A stretch of 64,000 nucleotides of DNA from Caulobacter sp. FWC26 (GTDB lineage: Bacteria > Pseudomonadota > Alphaproteobacteria > Caulobacterales > Caulobacteraceae): contig NZ_CP033875.1 in NCBI RefSeq assembly GCF_002742645.2, positions 3,388,001 through 3,452,000 on the forward strand, read 5' to 3'. The notes under the pieces are model-generated. The model did not search any database, was not told the DNA's origin, and worked only from the letters and a program-made list of their open reading frames with translations. The position numbers were made by a program, and so were the translations under genes. The number at the start of each line of letters is the position of its first letter. Positions within the stretch are counted from its first letter, which is position 1. Below, one piece after another: positions 503 through 13,028 of this stretch.

Positions 503-805
503 TTGAAACCGCTATCGTTTAAGCGCCACCGTTTTCCGGCCGACGTCATCAGATACGCCGTCTGGCTATATTTCCGATTTAGCTTGAGCCTCCGCGACGT
601 CGAAAGCCTCCTCGCCGAGCGCGGAATCGAGGTCAGCTACGAGACGATCCGGTGCTGGACCAAGAAGTTCGGCCCCGCCATCGCCAGGCGGTTGAAGAAA
701 CTTCGCCCCTCCCCTTCGCCCCGCTGGCATCTGGACGAAGTGGTCTGCCGGATCGGCGGACGGCACATGTACCTCTGGCGCGCGGTCGACGACGAAGGCG
801 AGTGA
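503..805 (+). pseudogene. IS6-family transposase, 5' fragment
   Basis: The 100 visible residues match the start of IS6/IS26-type transposases: an N-terminal helix-turn-helix (residues ~10-60, with LRDVESLLAERGIEVSYETI) and the first part of the DDE domain ending at MYLWRAVDDEGE. The first catalytic Asp is in WHLDEV (residue ~78). Intact relatives run to about 230-240 residues, so over half is missing. The frame ends at a TGA that seems to belong to the neighbouring IS3-type terminus (TGACGTGACCCCCA at about 803), suggesting that element inserted here. It is non-functional. The rest of the gene is not found on the other side, so a later deletion is likely. Confidence 0.75.
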
Positions 806-1382
806 CGTGACCCCCATTTCTCATCCAGCGATAACGAGAGTCCTGGGTTGATTTGACCTTGCCCCCAACCTTGGACCAGGTCGGGCCGGGATTTCTCGCC
901 GGTCAGGCGCCGGGCGGGCCATATGGCCCGGCGCCGTTCATCAGCTCGATCGGGCACTTGTCGCCAATCGCGCGGTGGGGACGATGTTCATTATAGTCCC
1001 TACGCCAAGCCTCGCATTTTGAACGGGCGTCGTCGAGGGACATGAACCAGGCGGTGTTCAGGCATTCGGCCCGGACCTTGCCGTTGAAGGATTCCGCGAA
1101 GGCGTTGTCCGTCGGCTTGCCAGGCCGGCTGAAGTCCAAGGTGACGCCGCGCTGATAGGCCCAAAGATCCAAGTCACGGGAGACAAATTCCGGGCCGTTG
1201 TCGACCCGTATGGTCTTGGGATAACCCACCACCTTGCCGGCCCGATCGAGGGTCTCGACAACGTCGTGAGCCTTGTAGGCGAAGCGGGGATCCAGGGCCG
1301 GCGAGAACCGGCTGAAGGTGTCGATGACCGCCAGAATGCGGATCTTGCGGCCATCGCGTTCCCCTCTCGGGCCACGTGATGA
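803..1382 (-). mobile_element. Remnant of an IS3-family element
   Basis: The left boundary is a probable terminal sequence, TGACGTGACCCCCATTT, at about 803. Inside is the C-terminal half of an OrfB transposase (stop at 903). No OrfA and no second terminus are seen, because the sequence passes directly into an integrase fragment at about 1376-1390. The element is therefore truncated and cannot move by itself. The terminus was judged by eye and not matched to a named insertion sequence. Confidence 0.55.
903..1382 (-). pseudogene. IS3-family transposase OrfB, C-terminal fragment
   Basis: The frame is open from about 1382 to the stop at 903. It shows the integrase-like core of IS3 OrfB: RILAVIDTFSR (first Asp), RVDNGPEFVSRDL (second Asp) and GKPTDNAFAESFNGKVR (catalytic Glu), ending in the usual WRRDYNEHRPH motif. 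All three DDE residues are present, but the N-terminal helix-turn-helix part and OrfA are gone. An in-frame TGA sits at the upstream limit. Intact OrfB proteins are about 270-290 residues; here about 155 remain. It is a decayed relic that marks recombination at the island edge. Confidence 0.75.
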
Positions 1383-1729
1383 ACATCATCGCGGAACGAC
1401 TTGAGGCTGGGTCGGTTGGTCATGTTTTCCCAGGCGCGACGTCCACGCCGGCGCTGTCCCACATGGCCATGGCGATGCTGCTGCGGAGAATGAAAAGCGA
1501 CATCACCGTCCACGGCTTCAGGTCAACGTTCCGCGATTGGGCCTCGGAAACGACGGGCTTCTCGCACGAGGTGTGCGAGATGGCCTTAGCCCATACAATC
1601 GCCAACAAGGCGGAGGCCGCCTACCGGCGCGGCGACCTGTTCGACAAGCGCCGCAAGCTGATGGAAGCGTGGGCTGGCTACTGCTCTACCCCGAAGAGCG
1701 GAAAGGTCGTGGCCTTGCGCCAGGGTTAG
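1376..1729 (+). pseudogene. Tyrosine recombinase/integrase, C-terminal fragment
   Basis: The fragment resembles the C-terminal catalytic domain of P4-type phage/island integrases. HVFPGATS is followed by the box II motif HGFRSTFRDWASE (His-x-x-Arg), a LAHT motif and the tyrosine region AEAAYRRGDLFDKRRKLMEAW. Full-length relatives are about 400 residues. Here only about 115 remain, and the first ten or so may be non-native sequence from the junction with the IS3 remnant. The element it served probably can no longer integrate or excise on its own. Its stop overlaps that of the convergent AlpA-like gene, an arrangement expected near an island end. Confidence 0.75.
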
Positions 1730-1926
1730 CCGACATCCGGCCGGTAGTTCGCCGGATCGGCAATCCAGCGATTGATCGCGGACTCCCGCCACCCCGCACC
1801 GTGAACGCTGATCGGGACCTGGCGAGGAAAGGTGCCCTCGCCGATCTTCCGATAGAGGGTCGAGCGGCTGAGGCCCGTGCGCGCCAGCACGGTCTTGAGG
1901 CGGACGATGCGGTCGAGATCGGCCAT
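1726..1926 (-). CDS. AlpA-family regulatory protein
   Basis: This is a 66-residue protein from ATG 1926. The sequence IVRLKTVLARTGLSRSTLYR followed by KIGEGTFPRQVPIS is the classic AlpA/MerR-like winged helix of prophage and island regulators, which often activate integrase or excision genes. An upstream in-frame ATG at 2109 would add 61 residues without AlpA character, so I prefer the short form. It is convergent with the integrase fragment and overlaps its end by a few bases. Such pairs are common at the integrase end of P4-like islands. Targets are unknown. Confidence 0.75.
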   Translation of the reverse strand: MADLDRIVRLKTVLARTGLSRSTLYRKIGEGTFPRQVPISVHGAGWRESAINRWIADPANYRPDVG

Positions 1927-2137
1927 CGTTTCAAGCTCCACAGACTGGGATCTGAAGGCATTCGATGAGCCAGAATTGGATTGCTCGCCGCTGGCGGCAA
2001 GACCTCGCGGAGCCAGATCGTACTCCAGGAAACAAAGACAGGCTCTAGGCGCCTCTAGCGAAGGTGAGAACGTACCTCCATGCGTCCTCTCGCACCCCGG
2101 CGTTGCCAATTTCGCCCTGCGAACCGGAATAGCTCCG

Positions 2138-4894: not shown

Positions 4895-4943
4895 ACTTTC
4901 CCGGATCGTCGGCGTTGCCGACGAACCGACCATGGAGACTTTC

Positions 4944-5372
4944 GTGACCGATACGCCTGAAGCCCGCACGCCCAACGTCGTCGACATCCACGTCGGAGGC
5001 CGCGTGCGCATGCGCCGCAAGATGCTGGGTATCAGCCAGGAAACGCTCGCTGACGCGCTGAAGCTCACCTTCCAGCAGGTTCAGAAGTACGAGCGCGGCG
5101 CCAACCGCGTCAGTGCCAGCAAGCTCTATGATATCGCCAAGACGCTCCAGGTCCCGGTGTCGTTCTTCTTCGACGGCCTCGCTGACCCGATGACCGACGA
5201 GGTCGACGAGGTCGGTGCCGCTGCCGAGCGCGTCATTACCGAGTTCCTGAACACGCCCGAAGGCCTGGAACTGGCCGAGATGTTCCCGAAGATCGGTCGG
5301 AGCCGCGTCCGTCGCCAGGTCCTCGATCTCGTGCGCGCCATGGCCGACGAGAAAGGCCGCGATAAGGCCTGA
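4944..5372 (+). CDS. XRE-family transcriptional regulator
   Basis: The product is a 142-residue Cro/CI-type regulator. Residues ~15-75 form the helix-turn-helix: RVRMRRKMLGISQETLADAL, LTFQQVQKYERGANRVSASK, then LYDIAKTLQVPVSFFFDGLA. The C-terminal ~60 residues are helical and charged. I chose the GTG at 4944 because GGAG lies 6-7 bases before it, inside the codons of an upstream ATG (4932). The domain is very close to regulators widespread in Caulobacter and relatives. It lies next to the tra genes and may control the element, but it has no proven target. Confidence 0.8.
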   Translation: MTDTPEARTPNVVDIHVGGRVRMRRKMLGISQETLADALKLTFQQVQKYERGANRVSASKLYDIAKTLQVPVSFFFDGLADPMTDEVDEVGAAAERVITEFLNTPEGLELAEMFPKIGRSRVRRQVLDLVRAMADEKGRDKA

Positions 5373-5381
5373 CAATACTCT

Positions 5382-5705
5382 TTAGCGGATCTCCGACGCC
5401 GGGCGGGATTCAGTCTCGAATGCCCGCTTTCCGCCACGCCGCCAGAGCGCCAGGGTGTGCTCGGCATCGTCGGCCTTGAGCATGTTCGCCAGGAACGTGA
5501 AGGCCCCGTAGAGCGCGGCGCGATCATCGCGGGTCAGTTCGACGAGGCCAGACTTCTGCACCAGGCCTCCCAGCTCGATCAGGTGGCGGGTTCGCTCGCG
5601 CCGCTTCACCACCCAGGCCCGCGTGTCCATGCGGGCTCGCCACGCTTCCAGGCGGTGGCGCGCGGCCCTCGTTCGGCGCTCGGCGTCATTGTTCGCCGCC
5701 AGCAC
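5382..5705 (-). CDS. traD: Conjugal transfer protein TraD-like (relaxosome accessory)
   Basis: The product has 107 residues from GTG 5705. The segment RTRHLIELGGLVQKSGLVEL, then TRDDRAALYGAFTFLA and ALWRRGGKRAFE, matches the small TraD proteins encoded beside traC in Ti-plasmid and alphaproteobacterial mobilisation regions (not the F-plasmid coupling ATPase of the same name). They are thought to help the relaxase process oriT. Its start overlaps the traC end by 20 bases, so the two are co-translated, transcribed away from oriT and traA. Confidence 0.75.
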   Translation of the reverse strand: MLAANNDAERRTRAARHRLEAWRARMDTRAWVVKRRERTRHLIELGGLVQKSGLVELTRDDRAALYGAFTFLANMLKADDAEHTLALWRRGGKRAFETESRPASEIR

Positions 5706-5952
5706 TTGCCGGAGCGCCGTCCTTGCCGCCGCGAAAGAACCCCGCGCCGCGCTTCCTCCAGCCTTCCTTGCGAGCGGCGTTCCCGGCGTCGGCCAGATCC
5801 AGCAGTCCGCCGGCCAGAGTATCGATGTCGAGGGCGTCGGCGCCCGTGGCGATCACCAGCTCGCCAAGCTGCCGAACCTTACGATCCTTCAGGATCCTGG
5901 CCTTGTCTTCGAGGCTCTTGAGTTCAGCGTCGAAGTCTCGTGGTTTTCGCAT
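5686..5952 (-). CDS. traC: Conjugal transfer protein TraC-like (relaxosome accessory)
   Basis: The product has 88 residues from ATG 5952, MRKPRDFDAELKSLEDKARI. A charged helical N-terminus is followed by RKVRQLGELVIATGADALD and a tail with EGWRKRGAGFFRGG. This is the pattern of small TraC/MobC-like proteins next to MOBQ relaxases. An upstream ATG at 6030 would put translation inside the oriT-proximal region and is less likely. It is the first gene of the traC-traD unit, divergent from traA with the oriT between them, as in Ti plasmids. Confidence 0.75.
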   Translation of the reverse strand: MRKPRDFDAELKSLEDKARILKDRKVRQLGELVIATGADALDIDTLAGGLLDLADAGNAARKEGWRKRGAGFFRGGKDGAPASAGGEQ

Positions 5953-6044
5953 CCCAAGTCTCCAGGTTTCGATGATGCGCTGATCGTAAAGCAGACGGTC
6001 CGGGAATGCTGTAAGGTCGCCGGAACACATTGGGACGGGCCGGT

Positions 6045-6095
6045 CCCTCCCGAGATTCTTTCTTGGGAGGGCGCGCTTATACGTCGTGCCGACGT
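6045..6095 (-). other. oriT: Origin of transfer (oriT) with a MOBQ/R1162-type nic region
   Basis: On the minus strand, the perfect inverted repeat ACGTCG-GCA-CGACGT (6095-6081) is followed by ATAAGCGCGCCCTCCC (6080-6065). As I recall the R1162/RSF1010 nic region (inverted repeat then GTAAATGCGCCCTCCC), 13 of 16 bases agree. The predicted nick lies after CCCT, between 6068 and 6067. A second inverted repeat, CCCTCCC (6045-6051) with GGGAGGG (6065-6071), spans the site. The location between divergent traC and traA is the Ti-plasmid arrangement. No biochemical evidence is available. Confidence 0.75.
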
Positions 6096-6124
6096 GCGCT
6101 CAGGGTAGTAGGTGGTCTGTCGCC

Positions 6125-8983
6125 ATGGCGATCTACCACCTCAGCGTCAAAGTCATCAGCCGCGCCACCGGGGCCAGCGCCGTGGCCTCGGCCGCCTATC
6201 GCTCCGCCAGCCGGCTGCACGACGAGCGGCTCGACCGCGACCACGACTTCACAAACAAGAGCGGTGTTGTCCATTCCGAGATCATGCTGCCGGACGGCGC
6301 GCCCGAGCAGCTTTCCGACCGCACGATGCTGTGGAACACGGTCGAGGCCGGCGAAAAGCGCAAGGACGCCCAGCTCTCCCGCGAGGTCGAATTCGCCATT
6401 CCGCGTGAGATGGACCAGGCCCAAGGCATCGCGCTGGCCCGCGACTTCGTCCAGCGCGAGATGGTCGATCGCGGCATGGTCGCCGACCTCAATGTGCATT
6501 GGGACATTGGCCCCGATGGTCTCGCCAAGCCCCACGCCCACGTCATGTTGTCGATGCGGGAGGTCGGCGAAGACGGCTTCGGCGCCAAGGTCCGCGACTG
6601 GAACCGCACCGAGCTGGTCGAGCACTGGCGCGAGGCCTGGGCCGACCACGTCAACGAGCGGCTGGCGCAACTCGATATCGACGCGCGGATCGATCACCGC
6701 AGCCTGGAAGAACAGGGCATCGACCTTGAGCCACAGCATAAAATAGGTCCGGCGGCCGGGCGCATGGCCGGCGAGGGTCTGGAGGCCGAGCGGTTCGAAG
6801 ATCATCACCGCATCGCGCGCGAGAATGGCGACAAGATCATCGCCGATCCGCGCATTGCCCTGGACGCCATCACCCACCAGCAGGCGACGTTTAAACAGCA
6901 GGATTTGGCGAAGTTCATCCACCGCCACTCGGACGGCAAGGATCAGTTCGACCGGGCCATGAGCGCGGTGCGGACCTCGCCCGAGTTGGTGGCGCTGGGC
7001 CAGGACGGGCGCGGCCAGGACCGTTTTACCAGCCGCGATATGATCGCTGTCGAGGATCGGCTGCATCGCGCTAGCGAAGTGATGGCGGAACGTCGGGCGC
7101 ACGGCGTCAGCGCGTCGCAGCAACGGCGCGCCCTGGCGCGCGCCGAGCAGCGTGGTCTCGTTCTGTCCGGCGAGCAGAAGGCCGGGTTCGAGCACGTCAC
7201 CGAGGGGCGCGATCTCGGCGTCGTCGTCGGCTATGCCGGCACCGGCAAGTCAGCGCTCCTGGGTGTCGCCCGCGAGGCCTGGGAGGACGCCGGCTATCGC
7301 GTTCAAGGCCTCGCGCTCTCGGGGATTGCCGCCGAGAACCTGGAAGGCGGATCGGGCATCGCTTCGCGCACGATCGCCAGCCTTGAACACCAGTGGGCGA
7401 AAGACCGCGAGTTGCTGGACGCCCGCGACGTGCTGGTGATCGACGAGGCCGGCATGATCGGCTCGCGGCAGATGGAGCGGCTGTTGTCGGCCGCCGAGAA
7501 GGCCGGCGCCAAGGTGGTGCTGGTCGGTGATCCTGAGCAGCTCCAGGCCATCGAGGCCGGCGCGGCCTTCCGGTCGATCGCCGAGCGCCATAGCCACGTC
7601 GAGATCACCCAGGTTCGTCGGCAGTACGAGGACTGGCAGCGCGACGCCACGCGGCATCTGGCCACCGGTCGGACGGGCGAGGCGCTGGACGCCTACGAGG
7701 CGCGCGGCATGGTCCACGCCGCCGAGACCCGCGACCAGGCGCGCGAGGATCTGGTCGAGCGCTGGGACCGTGAGCGTGTGGCCGAGCCGGGCAAGAGCCG
7801 GATCATCCTCACCCACACCAACGATGAGGTGCGCGAGCTGAACCTGACGGCCCGCGAGCGGCTGCGCCAGGCCGGCGCCTTGGGCGAGGACGTCACGATA
7901 AAAGCCGAGCGCGGCGAGCGTTCGTTCGCGACCGGGGATAGGCTGATGTTCCTGAAGAACGATCGCGGACTTGGCGTGAAGAACGGCATGCTCGGCGAGA
8001 TCGAGCAGGTCTCGCCGACCCAGATGACCGTGCGGCTCGACGCGGGGCGATCGGTGACCGTCGACCTGAAGGATTACGCCCAGGTCGATCATGGCTACGC
8101 GGCGACCATCCATAAGAGCCAGGGCGTCACGGTCGACCGGACCCATGTGCTGGCGACGCCGGGGATGGACCGCCACGGCGCCTATGTCGCCCTGTCGCGG
8201 CACCGCGACAGCGTGCAGGTCCACTACGGCCGCGACGAGTTCGAGGGTCTGGGCAAGCTGACCCGCGTGCTGTCGCGCGAACGGGCCAAGGACATGGCCA
8301 GCGATTTCGCCGAGCGGCGCGACATCCACGTGCCGGCGTCGATGCAGGCGAAGGAATCGCCGCAGCGCCAGCGCGGGATGTTCGACGGGTTCAAGCCGGC
8401 GAGTCCAGCGTGTCAACCGACGGCGCCGGCGCGAGAGGTCGGCCAGCTCTACCGGAACCGCGCGATCGAACGCCACGCCCGCGCTACGGCGGATGTCATG
8501 CGGATGAACGCCCGCGGGTTGCCCGTGCTAGCCCACCAGCGGCGAGCGTTGGAGGAGGCGCGCGAGGGTCTGGGGAAGATCGGTCCGCACGCGGCCAAGG
8601 ATCTGGAGCGAGCCTACATGCGTGAGCCCGGCTTGGCCGGTGAGGTCGCGTCGGGGCGGACGCAAATGGCGATCCGCGTCCTTCAGCTTGAGGCGGAGGT
8701 TCGGGCCGATCCGCGCCTACGGGCCGATCGGTTTGTCGAGCGCTGGCAGGGCCTGGAGCGGCAGCGCACCGCCTTCCACCGCGAGGGCGACATGACCGGC
8801 ACCCGGCAGGTCAAGGAGCGCATGGGCGCCATGGCCAAGAACTTGGAGCGCGATCCGCAGATAGAGTCGCTGCTGCGCGGGCGGCGGGCCGAGCTTGGTC
8901 TGCCGCCAGAGATAGGCCGCAGCATTGGACGGGGGCTCATCGAATACCTCGGCATTGGCCGTGGGCGCGGGCTTGGCGTTTAG
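6125..8983 (+). CDS. traA: TraA relaxase/helicase (MOBQ type)
   Basis: The product is a 952-residue conjugative relaxase fused to a helicase, like Ti-plasmid TraA. The N-terminal MobA/MobL domain has the nicking Tyr region SAAYRSASR (Tyr ~25) and the metal-binding His set HWDIGPDGLAKPHAHVML (His ~125, 137, 139). A superfamily I helicase follows: Walker A GYAGTGKSALL (~370), Walker B DEAGMIGSRQ (~438) and a C-terminal UvrD-like motif GYAATIHKSQGVTVD (~656). The tail is basic and helical. I chose the ATG at 6125 (MAIYHLSVK), the usual N-terminus of the family, over 6086, which overlaps oriT. It nicks oriT and unwinds the transferred strand. No coupling protein or mating-pair genes are visible, so transfer would need a helper. 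Confidence 0.9.
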   Translation: MAIYHLSVKVISRATGASAVASAAYRSASRLHDERLDRDHDFTNKSGVVHSEIMLPDGAPEQLSDRTMLWNTVEAGEKRKDAQLSREVEFAIPREMDQAQGIALARDFVQREMVDRGMVADLNVHWDIGPDGLAKPHAHVMLSMREVGEDGFGAKVRDWNRTELVEHWREAWADHVNERLAQLDIDARIDHRSLEEQGIDLEPQHKIGPAAGRMAGEGLEAERFEDHHRIARENGDKIIADPRIALDAITHQQATFKQQDLAKFIHRHSDGKDQFDRAMSAVRTSPELVALGQDGRGQDRFTSRDMIAVEDRLHRASEVMAERRAHGVSASQQRRALARAEQRGLVLSGEQKAGFEHVTEGRDLGVVVGYAGTGKSALLGVAREAWEDAGYRVQGLALSGIAAENLEGGSGIASRTIASLEHQWAKDRELLDARDVLVIDEAGMIGSRQMERLLSAAEKAGAKVVLVGDPEQLQAIEAGAAFRSIAERHSHVEITQVRRQYEDWQRDATRHLATGRTGEALDAYEARGMVHAAETRDQAREDLVERWDRERVAEPGKSRIILTHTNDEVRELNLTARERLRQAGALGEDVTIKAERGERSFATGDRLMFLKNDRGLGVKNGMLGEIEQVSPTQMTVRLDAGRSVTVDLKDYAQVDHGYAATIHKSQGVTVDRTHVLATPGMDRHGAYVALSRHRDSVQVHYGRDEFEGLGKLTRVLSRERAKDMASDFAERRDIHVPASMQAKESPQRQRGMFDGFKPASPACQPTAPAREVGQLYRNRAIERHARATADVMRMNARGLPVLAHQRRALEEAREGLGKIGPHAAKDLERAYMREPGLAGEVASGRTQMAIRVLQLEAEVRADPRLRADRFVERWQGLERQRTAFHREGDMTGTRQVKERMGAMAKNLERDPQIESLLRGRRAELGLPPEIGRSIGRGLIEYLGIGRGRGLGV

Positions 8984-8990
8984 GAGAAGA

Positions 8991-9587
8991 ATGATGGAGC
9001 ACGGTATTGCGCCGGAAGGGCCGGTCGATGCGGCGGCGGCGTTCGAGGCGCTGCGGCGGGAGGTGGCGTTGCTGAATGTCGCTGTCGCTGGACTTGCGGC
9101 CGAGCGAGCGCACGCGCCGGACTACAACGAGACGCTGGGCGAGATCGCCAAGGGCGTGTCGGTGGCAGTCGGACGGCTGGGCAAGGTGATGACCAGTCCC
9201 GCCTTTGCCCTGAGCCCGGCGGACCTGGCGCGACAGATCGCTGCGGCTGGCGACGAGGCCAGGCGGCAGGATCGCGTGGCTTTGCATCAGGCCCAGGAAG
9301 CGCTTCAGCGCTCCGGTCGTGATCTCGATGGGTGGATTGATCGGGCGCGGCTGGCCAGCTTGCAGAACTGGCGGCTGTTACAGGCGGCGGCTGTAGGCGT
9401 CGTTGCGGGAGCGATCCTCTATGCGAGCGTCCCGACCATAATCGTCAACGCCGCGCCGGCTAGTTGGGCGTGGCCGGAGAAGAGGGCGGCGCAAATGCTA
9501 CGCCGCGACATGTGGTCGGCCGGCGAGCGCTTGCTGTTGGTCGCCGATCCGGAGCGCTGGCAGAGGCTGGCGTTGCAAAAGGCCTGA
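8991..9587 (+). CDS. DUF6118-like protein (TraA-linked membrane protein)
   Basis: The product has 198 residues from the ATG at 8991, with AGGAG at 8982-8986. It sits 7 bases after traA, so it is almost certainly in the same operon. The N-terminal half is helical (PVDAAAAFEALRREVALLNV). A membrane segment, LLQAAAVGVVAGAILYASV, lies at ~143-165, and the C-terminus contains RDMWSAGERLLLVADPERW. Proteins of this kind regularly follow relaxase genes on alphaproteobacterial mobilisable elements and carry the name DUF6118. A role in transfer is plausible but unproven. Confidence 0.7.
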   Translation: MMEHGIAPEGPVDAAAAFEALRREVALLNVAVAGLAAERAHAPDYNETLGEIAKGVSVAVGRLGKVMTSPAFALSPADLARQIAAAGDEARRQDRVALHQAQEALQRSGRDLDGWIDRARLASLQNWRLLQAAAVGVVAGAILYASVPTIIVNAAPASWAWPEKRAAQMLRRDMWSAGERLLLVADPERWQRLALQKA

Positions 9588-9600
9588 CCGATTGGAGCGT

Positions 9601-10404
9601 CTATAGGGCCATCGCATCGGCAATAGTCGTATATTCGTCAGCGCCTATTGAAAAGCTGCCAGGCAACAGGTGACATTGCAGCATCAACAAATGGGGCATC
9701 AGCTCTTTAGCGCGGTAGTAAAGCTCGTCCGATGGATGATCGTCTGAGCGGAATCCGAAGTGGATTTCCCTGATCGCCTCTCTCGGCACAGCCACGAGAT
9801 ACAGCGGTCTTCCATTGATATCGATGACCGTGAATTTGCCACTGGGAGTTTCGCTCTCTCCGGGCGTGACGCCCTGAAGGCATTTCACCACGCGCACTTC
9901 CTCTTCATACGACCAGCACAGCGGCTTATGCAGGAACAACCGCTGAAGCTCTTCGTAGTGGTCTTGCGGGAAATGGTGCGTGCCGCCAACTTCAATCCCT
10001 GTCGTCGGCTTGCCGATGAAGGGCTGGTTTAGCCTGCGCGAGACATAGATCACGTTGCCATACTGAGCCGGGATCAAGTTGTGTGCTTCCCCGGTCAGCC
10101 CTGCCGCGACAACATCGATCCCTATTACTAAGCCGCGATGCTGCTCGGCGTAATGCGCCCACATGAGCGGATTGGTCGGTGTGCGCGTGAGCGAGAGCAC
10201 ACCCGTCCTCTGCCCCCATAAAAGCTGCTTGCCCATGACGTGAATGCGTTCCGGGATGCGATCTAACGCCATGCTTCCCGATTCATCCGGATAGACGGGC
10301 GTGTCGAACGGATCGTTGAAATGCTCTGGCCGCGAGAAGCCGATCGTCGCCGTTTCGATGATCTGCTGCCCAGCTTTAAAGGGCACGTATTTGTACAGGA
10401 TCAT
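9601..10404 (-). CDS. DUF2971 domain protein (possible defence cargo)
   Basis: The product has 267 residues. MILYKYVPFKAGQQIIETAT, then IGFSRPEHFNDPFDTPVYP, is the signature of DUF2971 (short strand, 'L.FS.P..FNDPFD'), followed by GVLSLTRTPTNPLMWAHYAE (the 'C/SF....N.LMW.HYA' motif) and GLVIGIDV. The family is frequent in genomic islands and near phage-defence genes; its biochemical activity is not known to me. It lies 61 bases downstream of the 570-residue gene on the same strand, so the two are probably one transcript. Codon use is less GC-rich than in the chromosomal genes. Confidence 0.75.
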   Translation of the reverse strand: MILYKYVPFKAGQQIIETATIGFSRPEHFNDPFDTPVYPDESGSMALDRIPERIHVMGKQLLWGQRTGVLSLTRTPTNPLMWAHYAEQHRGLVIGIDVVAAGLTGEAHNLIPAQYGNVIYVSRRLNQPFIGKPTTGIEVGGTHHFPQDHYEELQRLFLHKPLCWSYEEEVRVVKCLQGVTPGESETPSGKFTVIDINGRPLYLVAVPREAIREIHFGFRSDDHPSDELYYRAKELMPHLLMLQCHLLPGSFSIGADEYTTIADAMAL

Positions 10405-10465
10405 TGCAGTTCTTCAGGCACCCGGTAGAGGCGTTACGAGTTGGCCAGCATGTGAACGTTGAAAG

Positions 10466-12178
10466 CTATGTTTTGACCTGACGGTCGAATAGTCGCTCGA
10501 TATTTTCAAGTTCATTGGCAATCAGAGCGCACAGGTAGCGAAAATTTTCGGCCAAACTGCCATGGCGTGAGATGGCTTCTTGGACGATTTCGTTGGCTTC
10601 GCTACTTCCGGCGTGGCCTTTCACCTTCGACCTTATCCGCTGAATTGTACGCAAACCCACGAGCTGAACTGACGAGCCACTTGGGTGTTCGTGAGCGATC
10701 AGCTTTTCAAGCAGCGCAATGCTCTGTTCTTTTTCAGTGTAGGCAACACCCGCTTCATCCAGCTTCTTGCGAATGAATTTGGCTTCAAAGCCCTCCACGA
10801 GGAGCTTTGAAAGATCCATATTTGCTTCACTCCACTCATCCCGGCTTGTGGTCAGCGGCTGATTTGCGCGATTGAGCAATTCGACATCACGAAGTGTCCA
10901 CCATGGCGTGCGCTTATCTTTCCAGCGCCGCACGATAGACAGCACCTCTTCACGAGGCGGCATGAACGACACGAACTCACCTTTGAAGTCGTTGACAAAG
11001 GCGCGTTCGGAAATCGGGGATTTCGGCTCTTCGTTGTAAGAGAGCCAATGCAGTTGCTCAGAATACGGCAGATTTCTGAGATCACAGATATAAGCGTGAA
11101 TCTGTCCGGCCTCATTCACATCGAAGCCGCGTAAACTCCATGCCGCGCGGCACTGAACGTCTCTTTCCCCGACCGTGTATTTTTCACGATCCGTTTTATA
11201 CTTTGACAGCACCTCCGGGCGGAAAAATGCCGGAGAAAGCTCAAAAGGAAGAGAATTTCCGTCAGCTTCAAAATAGTTTGTAGTCGCTTTGGGATCGGTT
11301 GAGATTTCAGTTATCGTGTTATTTCGCCAGTCTTGGGCGACAAACTCGACATATCGCTTTTTCCTGCGCCCGCTCCATCCATCTTTGATGTCTTCCATGA
11401 CTTCAAGGGCCGGCCTGCGAAGGCCGATGATCTGATAGCCGCGCGTATAGGCGCAATTCCCGCCCACCTTCTGGCGGTAAACTAAGCCACCCTCTTCGAA
11501 AATCTCCTCGGGACCGTCCGGCCAGCCATTAAACGACCCACGGCGCAGCAACGTGAAATCGAACATGCGGACGAGCGACGAATTCGAGACTGCGAGATAT
11601 TCTTCAAGCGCAGGCCAAGAGAACGAGACGAGCAAAACCTCGTCCGAACCACGCGGGCGTATCGAGACCACATGATCTAAGTCGCCATTCTCATCAAATT
11701 TACAATAAGAATTATATTCTGGCCGCCAATGAATTCCTGCCAGATGAGTGTATTCTTGGTTCACCTCGAAATAGGTGCGGTCGTCTCCAGACCATCCTTC
11801 GAAGGTCCGACCGAAAACGAGATCCTTGCCTTGATTGAGCGCTTTGGAACCCTTGCCGTTAGCACCTCGCTCGATCCACATCTCCTCGCGCCCACCGCCA
11901 TAAACGTAGCTGGCGATGCTCGTGTACGGATTGCAGCTCCAAGCTAGAAGGTCGGTTTGATCTGGCGGCGACAGAAGCTCGTTGGGAACAACCATGGAGT
12001 GGATGAACGCATACGGCCCCGATCCATAGATGACGATCTCGTCGGTGGAGGCATTTGCTCGCAGGAAGGCCAGATGCTTTCCGGCCCTAATCCAATCCGA
12101 AAAGGCAGCAGGATCAGATGGCGGCGTGTCAAGGCGAGCTATCTGCTCGGCGATTTTCGTATGCGCAAAGCTAGGCAT
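10466..12178 (-). CDS. Large uncharacterised cargo protein
   Basis: This is a 570-residue protein I do not recognise. It has no signal peptide or membrane segments and no obvious nucleotide-binding or nuclease motif. The N-terminal ~230 residues look globular (aromatic-rich beta segments such as YGSGPYAFIHSMVV). The C-terminal ~100 residues are helical (FIRKKLDEAGVAYTEKEQSI; NFRYLCALIANELENIERLF). The DNA is visibly AT-richer than the flanks, consistent with recent acquisition. It is the first gene of a likely two-gene unit with the DUF2971 gene and sits between the tra module and the tRNA end of the island, a usual place for cargo. Defence is a guess from position alone. Confidence 0.75.
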   Translation of the reverse strand: MPSFAHTKIAEQIARLDTPPSDPAAFSDWIRAGKHLAFLRANASTDEIVIYGSGPYAFIHSMVVPNELLSPPDQTDLLAWSCNPYTSIASYVYGGGREEMWIERGANGKGSKALNQGKDLVFGRTFEGWSGDDRTYFEVNQEYTHLAGIHWRPEYNSYCKFDENGDLDHVVSIRPRGSDEVLLVSFSWPALEEYLAVSNSSLVRMFDFTLLRRGSFNGWPDGPEEIFEEGGLVYRQKVGGNCAYTRGYQIIGLRRPALEVMEDIKDGWSGRRKKRYVEFVAQDWRNNTITEISTDPKATTNYFEADGNSLPFELSPAFFRPEVLSKYKTDREKYTVGERDVQCRAAWSLRGFDVNEAGQIHAYICDLRNLPYSEQLHWLSYNEEPKSPISERAFVNDFKGEFVSFMPPREEVLSIVRRWKDKRTPWWTLRDVELLNRANQPLTTSRDEWSEANMDLSKLLVEGFEAKFIRKKLDEAGVAYTEKEQSIALLEKLIAHEHPSGSSVQLVGLRTIQRIRSKVKGHAGSSEANEIVQEAISRHGSLAENFRYLCALIANELENIERLFDRQVKT

Positions 12179-12938: not shown

Positions 12939-13028
12939 TGGCGGTGAGAGAGGGATTCGAACCCTCGATAGAGTTTCCCCTATACACGCGTTCCAGGCGT
13001 GCGCCTTCAACCACTCGGCCACCTCACC
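12939..13028 (-). tRNA. tRNA-Ser (anticodon GGA)
   Basis: The minus-strand sequence folds as a class II tRNA. The acceptor GGTGAGG (13028-13022) pairs with TCTCACC (one G-U pair), followed by discriminator G and an encoded CCA ending at 12939. The anticodon loop reads CTGGAAC (GGA at 12994-12992), the long variable arm is ATAGGGGAAACTCTAT, and the T-arm is GAGGGTTCGAATCCCTC. It decodes UCC/UCU serine codons. Its 3' end faces the accessory island, so it is the likely integration site. Confidence 0.95.

What the first reader, a model, noticed from the sequence alone, without database searches (positions are those of the whole stretch)
6045..6095. A Ti/R1162-like oriT with a predicted nick site between traC and traA
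The minus strand shows a short inverted repeat, ACGTCG-GCA-CGACGT, directly followed by ATAAGCGCGCCCTCCC. This matches 13 of 16 bases of the R1162/RSF1010 nic region as I remember it, and a second inverted repeat (CCCTCCC/GGGAGGG) spans the expected nick between 6068 and 6067. Location between divergent traC and traA is the Ti-plasmid design. A chromosomal island with an apparently complete relaxase and oriT but no mating apparatus would be mobilisable in trans.
Basis: partly seen in the sequence, partly recalled or inferred. Interest (0 to 1): 0.7.

Follow-up and report, generated by a model that had tools for sequence, protein, structure and literature searches.

The report
Conserved DNA-transfer start site beside traA
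The short hairpin-plus-box in front of traA is very probably the start site for conjugative DNA transfer, kept almost unchanged in related islands and plasmids of alpha-proteobacteria; it is a new example of a known kind, and the island that carries it here looks partly broken.

Summary
On the minus strand ACGTCG-GCA-CGACGT is followed by ATAAGCGCGCCCTCCC, matching 14 of 16 bases of an IncQ1/MOBQ plasmid oriT, between traA and divergent traD-family genes. As a motif alone it is modest (0.12 expected per 64 kb shuffle); conservation decides. Of 21 TraA loci found by protein, all 19 with upstream DNA carry the exact 24-base core 29 bp before traA. In 390 family genomes the exact core occurs 45 times, 45 of 45 within 24-48 bp of a TraA match. 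In more distant relatives other letters still pair. TraA has the three MOBQ catalytic motifs. So this is very probably TraA's oriT; the nick bond is untested. The second repeat is common, not universal (11 of 50 fold weakly). VirB4 and coupling proteins are far away in this genome. Three sibling copies have tRNA-Ser att repeats; the window copy has a truncated integrase and no left repeat found within 32 kb, so it looks decayed. Ti-like traACD islands are already described in Mesorhizobium (PMC8627217): a new member of a known kind.

The parts
6081..6095 (-). oriT inverted repeat ACGTCG-GCA-CGACGT, predicted TraA binding hairpin, 5' of the nick on the transferred strand
   Evidence: invariant in 19 of 19 protein-first loci; other arm letters still pair in L091 and IncQ1, and p42d adds a pair
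6065..6080 (-). nic box ATAAGCGCGCCCTCCC; nick predicted within CCCTC, exact bond untested
   Evidence: 14 of 16 to IncQ1 pCCK1900; TAAGCGCGCCCTC fits 12 of 13 positions of TAAGTGCGCCCTY in the MOBQ consensus quoted by PMC3832669 (passages)
6045..6071 (-). second inverted repeat overlapping the nic box; common but not universal, role unproven
   Evidence: mean folding z -0.66 over 48 sequences; 11 of 50 weaker than -3 kcal/mol
6125..8983 (+). traA: MOBQ (Ti-type) relaxase plus helicase, 952 aa
   Evidence: PF03389, TIGR02768, NF041496; Y25, E87/E89, H125/H137/H139
5686..6030 (-). gene in the traC position, PF06412 family, probable relaxosome accessory protein (inferred); start codon uncertain
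   Evidence: relatives in 31 of 32 loci
5382..5705 (-). gene in the traD position, PF06412 family
   Evidence: relatives in 31 of 32 loci
4932..5372 (+). HTH_3 regulator, island gene
   Evidence: relatives in 14 of 32 loci
8925..9587 (+). DUF6118 protein after traA
   Evidence: relatives in 29 of 32 loci
1726..2109 (-). AlpA-like regulator, possible excision factor (inferred)
   Evidence: PF05930; relatives in 25 of 32 loci
1376..1729 (+). C-terminal remnant of a tyrosine integrase (aligns to residues 281-383 of a 395-residue relative)
   Evidence: full-length relatives
903..1232 (-). IS3-type transposase fragment at the damaged left end
12939..13028 (-). tRNA-Ser(GGA): right border of the island (inferred; its 3' end faces the island)
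   Evidence: the same tRNA 3' end is repeated at the far end of two sibling islands

Best explanation
This is the oriT of a MOBQ (Ti-type TraA) relaxase on an integrative mobilisable island of a Caulobacteraceae bacterium (probably Caulobacter, inferred from its nearest relatives). TraA would bind the ACGTCG/CGACGT hairpin as single-stranded DNA, cut the minus strand inside GCGCCCTC through Tyr25, stay attached to the 5' end, and lead the strand out with traC/traD first and traA last. The coupling protein and channel must come from another system in the cell. Shown here: the site, its conservation, the pairing with changed letters, the relaxase motifs, and the distance of VirB4 and coupling-protein genes. 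Inferred: binding, cutting, the exact bond, the accessory role of traC/traD, transfer. This copy looks decayed: it can probably be nicked but may not excise, because its integrase is truncated and no left attachment repeat was found.
For: Core exact in 19 of 19 protein-first loci with upstream DNA, of 21 loci found; L018 and L019 lacked upstream DNA. 45 exact places in 30 of 390 family genomes, reversed-pattern control 0 in every row; 45 of 45 lie 24-48 bp from a TraA match. Some of these places are the same loci as, so the two sets overlap. Other arm letters still pair in L091 and IncQ1; p42d keeps the arms, adds a pair and changes the loop. Same gene layout on pWSM1497 and a Blastomonas plasmid. 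TraA catalytic residues present (MobA residues as named in PMC6856555, passages). The window's genome has seven T4CP-family and seven VirB4-family matches, the nearest VirB4 683 kb from this island. No terminator or sigma-70 pattern in 5900-6200. Att repeats of 14-15 nt at tRNA-Ser 3' ends in three siblings, 30.0, 19.2 and 17.2 kb apart, with full-length integrases seen in two of them.
Against: No nicking or transfer experiment. From the hairpin to GCGCCCTC the distance is 6 bases here, 5 in p42d and 8 in IncQ1. The nick position is recalled analogy only. No left att repeat within 32 kb (13-base exact words, 14 bases with up to 2 mismatches), so this copy may be immobile. Coupling proteins were sought only in the window's own genome, and VirB4 by one Pfam model; one of 15 chromosomal copies in nine near-complete genomes has a VirB4 match 33 kb away. 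The Mesorhizobium study filed its TraA relaxases under MOBF by HMM score, so the class name is not undisputed.
Confidence: 0.92

Rival explanations
1. The inverted repeat is mainly an operator for the divergent traC/traA promoters, bound by TraA or a regulator, rather than a nicking site.
For: It lies between divergent genes, 29 bp from the traA start. In pIP501 the relaxase TraA binds the tra promoter at oriT repeats (PMC4981023, passages), so both roles can coexist.
Against: An operator would not need the 3' box that matches IncQ1 and the published MOBQ consensus; box columns 24, 26, 27 and 28 lie outside the search pattern and are 48, 48, 47 and 47 of 48.
Confidence: 0.06
2. The site in this copy is a relic: oriT and traA persist by descent but the island no longer transfers. 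This does not exclude the best explanation; it concerns present activity.
For: Integrase cut down to about its last 113 residues, IS fragments at the left end, no left att repeat found within 32 kb.
Against: oriT core and full-length traA are intact; TraA is 89% identical to the second copy in the same genome, which has att repeats and a 399-residue integrase.
Confidence: 0.5

Closest known systems
Mesorhizobium IMEs of the IMEMl-R88B type (Ti-plasmid-like traACD)
   Same: [quoted passage not shown] pWSM1497, called a mobilizable plasmid in that study, carries a site 88.1% identical over 59 bp beside traA and two traD genes.
   Different: Other host order; there an RDF gene lies downstream of traA, here DUF6118 follows traA and the AlpA gene is on the other side; the study typed its relaxases as MOBF. 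No letters of the R88B oriT were compared.
oriT of Rhizobium etli p42d (MOBQ2)
   Same: Hairpin ACGTCGC/GCGACGT then ATATTGCGCCCTC, same gene order.
   Different: Longer arm and loop, one base shorter spacing; p42d is typed conjugative; its nick-mapping paper is not held.
RSF1010/R1162 (IncQ1) oriT
   Same: Hairpin then TAAGTGCGCCCTCCC in an IncQ1 plasmid; 14 of 16 box bases shared.
   Different: Other arm sequence; MobA there has a primase part (PMC4981023, passages), TraA here a helicase part.
Sphingomonad mobilizable plasmids with Ti-type TraA
   Same: traD-traD-traA genes at the match in many listed records; the site itself in listed rows; DUF6118 after traA on one plasmid read.
   Different: Replicons rather than chromosomal islands; MOB-suite types some as conjugative.

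Membership tests
MOBQ relaxase (Ti-type TraA) | MobA/MobL relaxase domain with Tyr, Glu and His motifs | tested here: met
   PF03389 3.7e-72, MobQ NF041496 252.6 bits over cut-off 200, TraA_Ti 934.7 over 590.45; motifs by alignment to 2ns6
MOBQ oriT | Inverted repeat 5' of a TAAGTGCGCCCTY-like box | tested here: met
MOBQ oriT | Relaxase nicks in the box and the site supports transfer | not testable with these tools
   needs protein or mating assay
Ti-type traACD locus | Divergent traC/traD and traA flanking oriT | tested here: met
Canonical IME (own relaxase, no coupling protein, no channel; definition in PMC5704250, passages) | No T4CP or VirB4 in the element | tested here: met
   none of seven T4CP or seven VirB4 matches in the window's genome lies in the island; nearest VirB4 683 kb away
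Canonical IME (own relaxase, no coupling protein, no channel; definition in PMC5704250, passages) | Integrase and flanking att repeats | tested here: not met
   window copy: truncated integrase, no left repeat found. Met in sibling copies G000b and G233a

The most novel reading that the evidence does not exclude
A family of canonical MOBQ mobilisable islands has spread through Caulobacteraceae, with up to five oriT copies in one genome. Most keep one identical oriT core while their relaxases diverge to about 60% identity. Each exact oriT found stays beside its own traA, as expected if these relaxases act in cis, and a copy that has lost its integrase, as here, may serve as a fixed Hfr-like origin that exports neighbouring chromosome.
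Probability: 0.3. Interest if true: 0.5.

Novelty: new member of a known kind. Interest (0 to 1): 0.3.

Why it matters
It gives a sequence handle (a 24-base core) for finding transfer-competent islands and plasmids in Caulobacteraceae and sphingomonads, and names a testable nick site. A 2017 review said that none of the IMEs described in Proteobacteria was canonical (PMC5704250, passages); the Mesorhizobium survey of 2021 (PMC8627217, passages) and this family bear on that gap.

Tried and rejected
Second hairpin as a conserved structure: over 48 distinct sequences mean z was -0.66 against -0.17 for the next 40 bases (paired Wilcoxon p 0.015). On a recount with two plasmid loci added, 11 of 50 fold more weakly than -3 kcal/mol and 21 of 50 at -6.5 or stronger. 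I treat it as common but unproven. Orphan oriTs without a relaxase: none among 45 exact places; inexact ones were not sought genome-wide, and three inexact sites beside TraA were seen (L080, L083, L091). Viral contigs: 0 exact matches to the core. Terminator reading: none found. A paper on these Caulobacter islands: none recognised in the listings (20 titles shown of 77, 45 and 22 papers); one search returned no paper. Nick-mapping papers for p42d and pTiC58 are not held. RSF1010 record NC_001740 is not held, so an IncQ1 plasmid stood in for it.

Full report
What is there. The minus strand at 6095-6065 reads ACGTCG-GCA-CGACGT then ATAAGCGCGCCCTCCC. To the left are two PF06412 (TraD-family) ORFs in the traC and traD positions; to the right is traA, whose product scores as Ti-type TraA and MobQ relaxase with a helicase part. 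Its Tyr25, Glu87/Glu89 and His125/His137/His139 align with the catalytic residues of R1162 MobA (residues named in PMC6856555, passages).

Is it more than chance. The relaxed motif is expected 2.5 times per 64 kb shuffle, so it is not impressive alone. With the exact 8-base box it is 0.12 per window, and 2 of 20000 shuffles of the 95-bp gap. Conservation is the real test. Starting from TraA protein, 21 loci were found in named genomes; 19 have upstream DNA and 19 of 19 carry the exact 24-base core 29 bp before traA. Starting from the core, 30 of 390 genomes of the family hold 45 places, with 0 for the reversed control, and 45 of 45 lie 24-48 bp from a TraA match. The two sets overlap for the same reason. 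The core search is exact, so its columns are invariant by construction; the 19 protein-first loci are the unbiased set, though they are mostly Caulobacter.

Hairpin rather than mere sequence. L080 and L083 change the loop to GAA; L091, a more distant TraA locus (66% identity), has CGTTGT-GCA-ACAACG; p42d has ACGTCGC-GACA-GCGACGT; IncQ1 has GTTTCTC-GAA-GAGAAAC. In all six, the window included, a GCGC[AC]CTC box begins 5-8 bases after the right arm. This is what a MOBQ relaxase recognition hairpin would look like (RSF1010 MobA, recalled). The MOBQ consensus NWACCNNTAAGTGCGCCCTYNN is quoted in PMC3832669 (passages).

The second repeat. It is real in the window and folds well in many Caulobacter copies, but 11 of 50 sequences fold weakly and the mean z is only -0.66, so I claim no role.

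The island. Of 32 loci compared (the window included), 31 have relatives of traC and of traD, 29 of DUF6118, 25 of AlpA and 14 of the HTH gene. The two ORFs right of DUF6118 (9601-12178) have relatives in none of the other 31. In the window's genome no T4CP or VirB4 match lies near the island; the nearest VirB4 is 683 kb away. For relatives only VirB4 was sought: among 15 chromosomal copies in nine genomes of three or fewer contigs the nearest is 33 kb to 3.5 Mb away, one of 15 under 100 kb, and two further copies lie on a small contig without one. A tRNA gene was found in 10 of 25 stretches scanned. Of nine tRNA-adjacent copies examined, three have a 14-15 nt tRNA 3'-end repeat at the far end (30.0, 19.2 and 17.2 kb), one has a 19-nt repeat of the tRNA 5' end, one a 13-nt internal match, and four, the window included, none in the flank that I had. 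The window copy borders a tRNA-Ser(GGA) of the same sequence as two siblings with repeats (G211b, G233a) but has only the integrase C-terminus, next to IS fragments. It is best read as a decayed copy of an integrative mobilisable element.

Known or new. Ti-like traACD IMEs with divergent traA and traC are described for Mesorhizobium (PMC8627217, passages; typed MOBF there). A search with the 61-base site matched 105 plasmid records at E up to 10, 75 of them in six sphingomonad genera; the 60 listed rows have E of 0.03 or better, the other 45 were not seen and may include chance matches. [quoted passage not shown] so a cis preference here is possible, not shown. The finding is sound and ordinary: a new member of a known kind.

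Noticed in passing
window 6110-6141: The traA start codon sits in the middle of a palindrome (AGGTGGT-CTGT-CGCCATGGCG-ATCT-ACCACCT) that could fold the start of the traA message; an overlapping 40-base stretch folds better than shuffles on average (mean z -1.72 over 48 sequences), but several relatives break outer pairs.
   Followed up: partly
G000:C3:1516001-1554000 (L061, L102): A second island of the same family in the same genome, about 30 kb, with 14-nt tRNA-Ser(GCT) repeats, a full-length 399-aa integrase and an identical oriT core.
   Followed up: partly
   Followed up: no
L108, pWSM1497 7001-7059: This plasmid is typed non-mobilizable by MOB-suite although it carries traA, two traD genes and this site; eleven of 105 matching plasmid records are typed so.
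   Followed up: no
window 503-1232: Truncated IS240-type and IS3-type transposase fragments at the island's damaged left end.
   Followed up: partly
window 9601-12178: A DUF2971 ORF and a 570-aa ORF without Pfam match lie between DUF6118 and the tRNA and have no relatives in the other 31 island loci: probable cargo.
   Followed up: no
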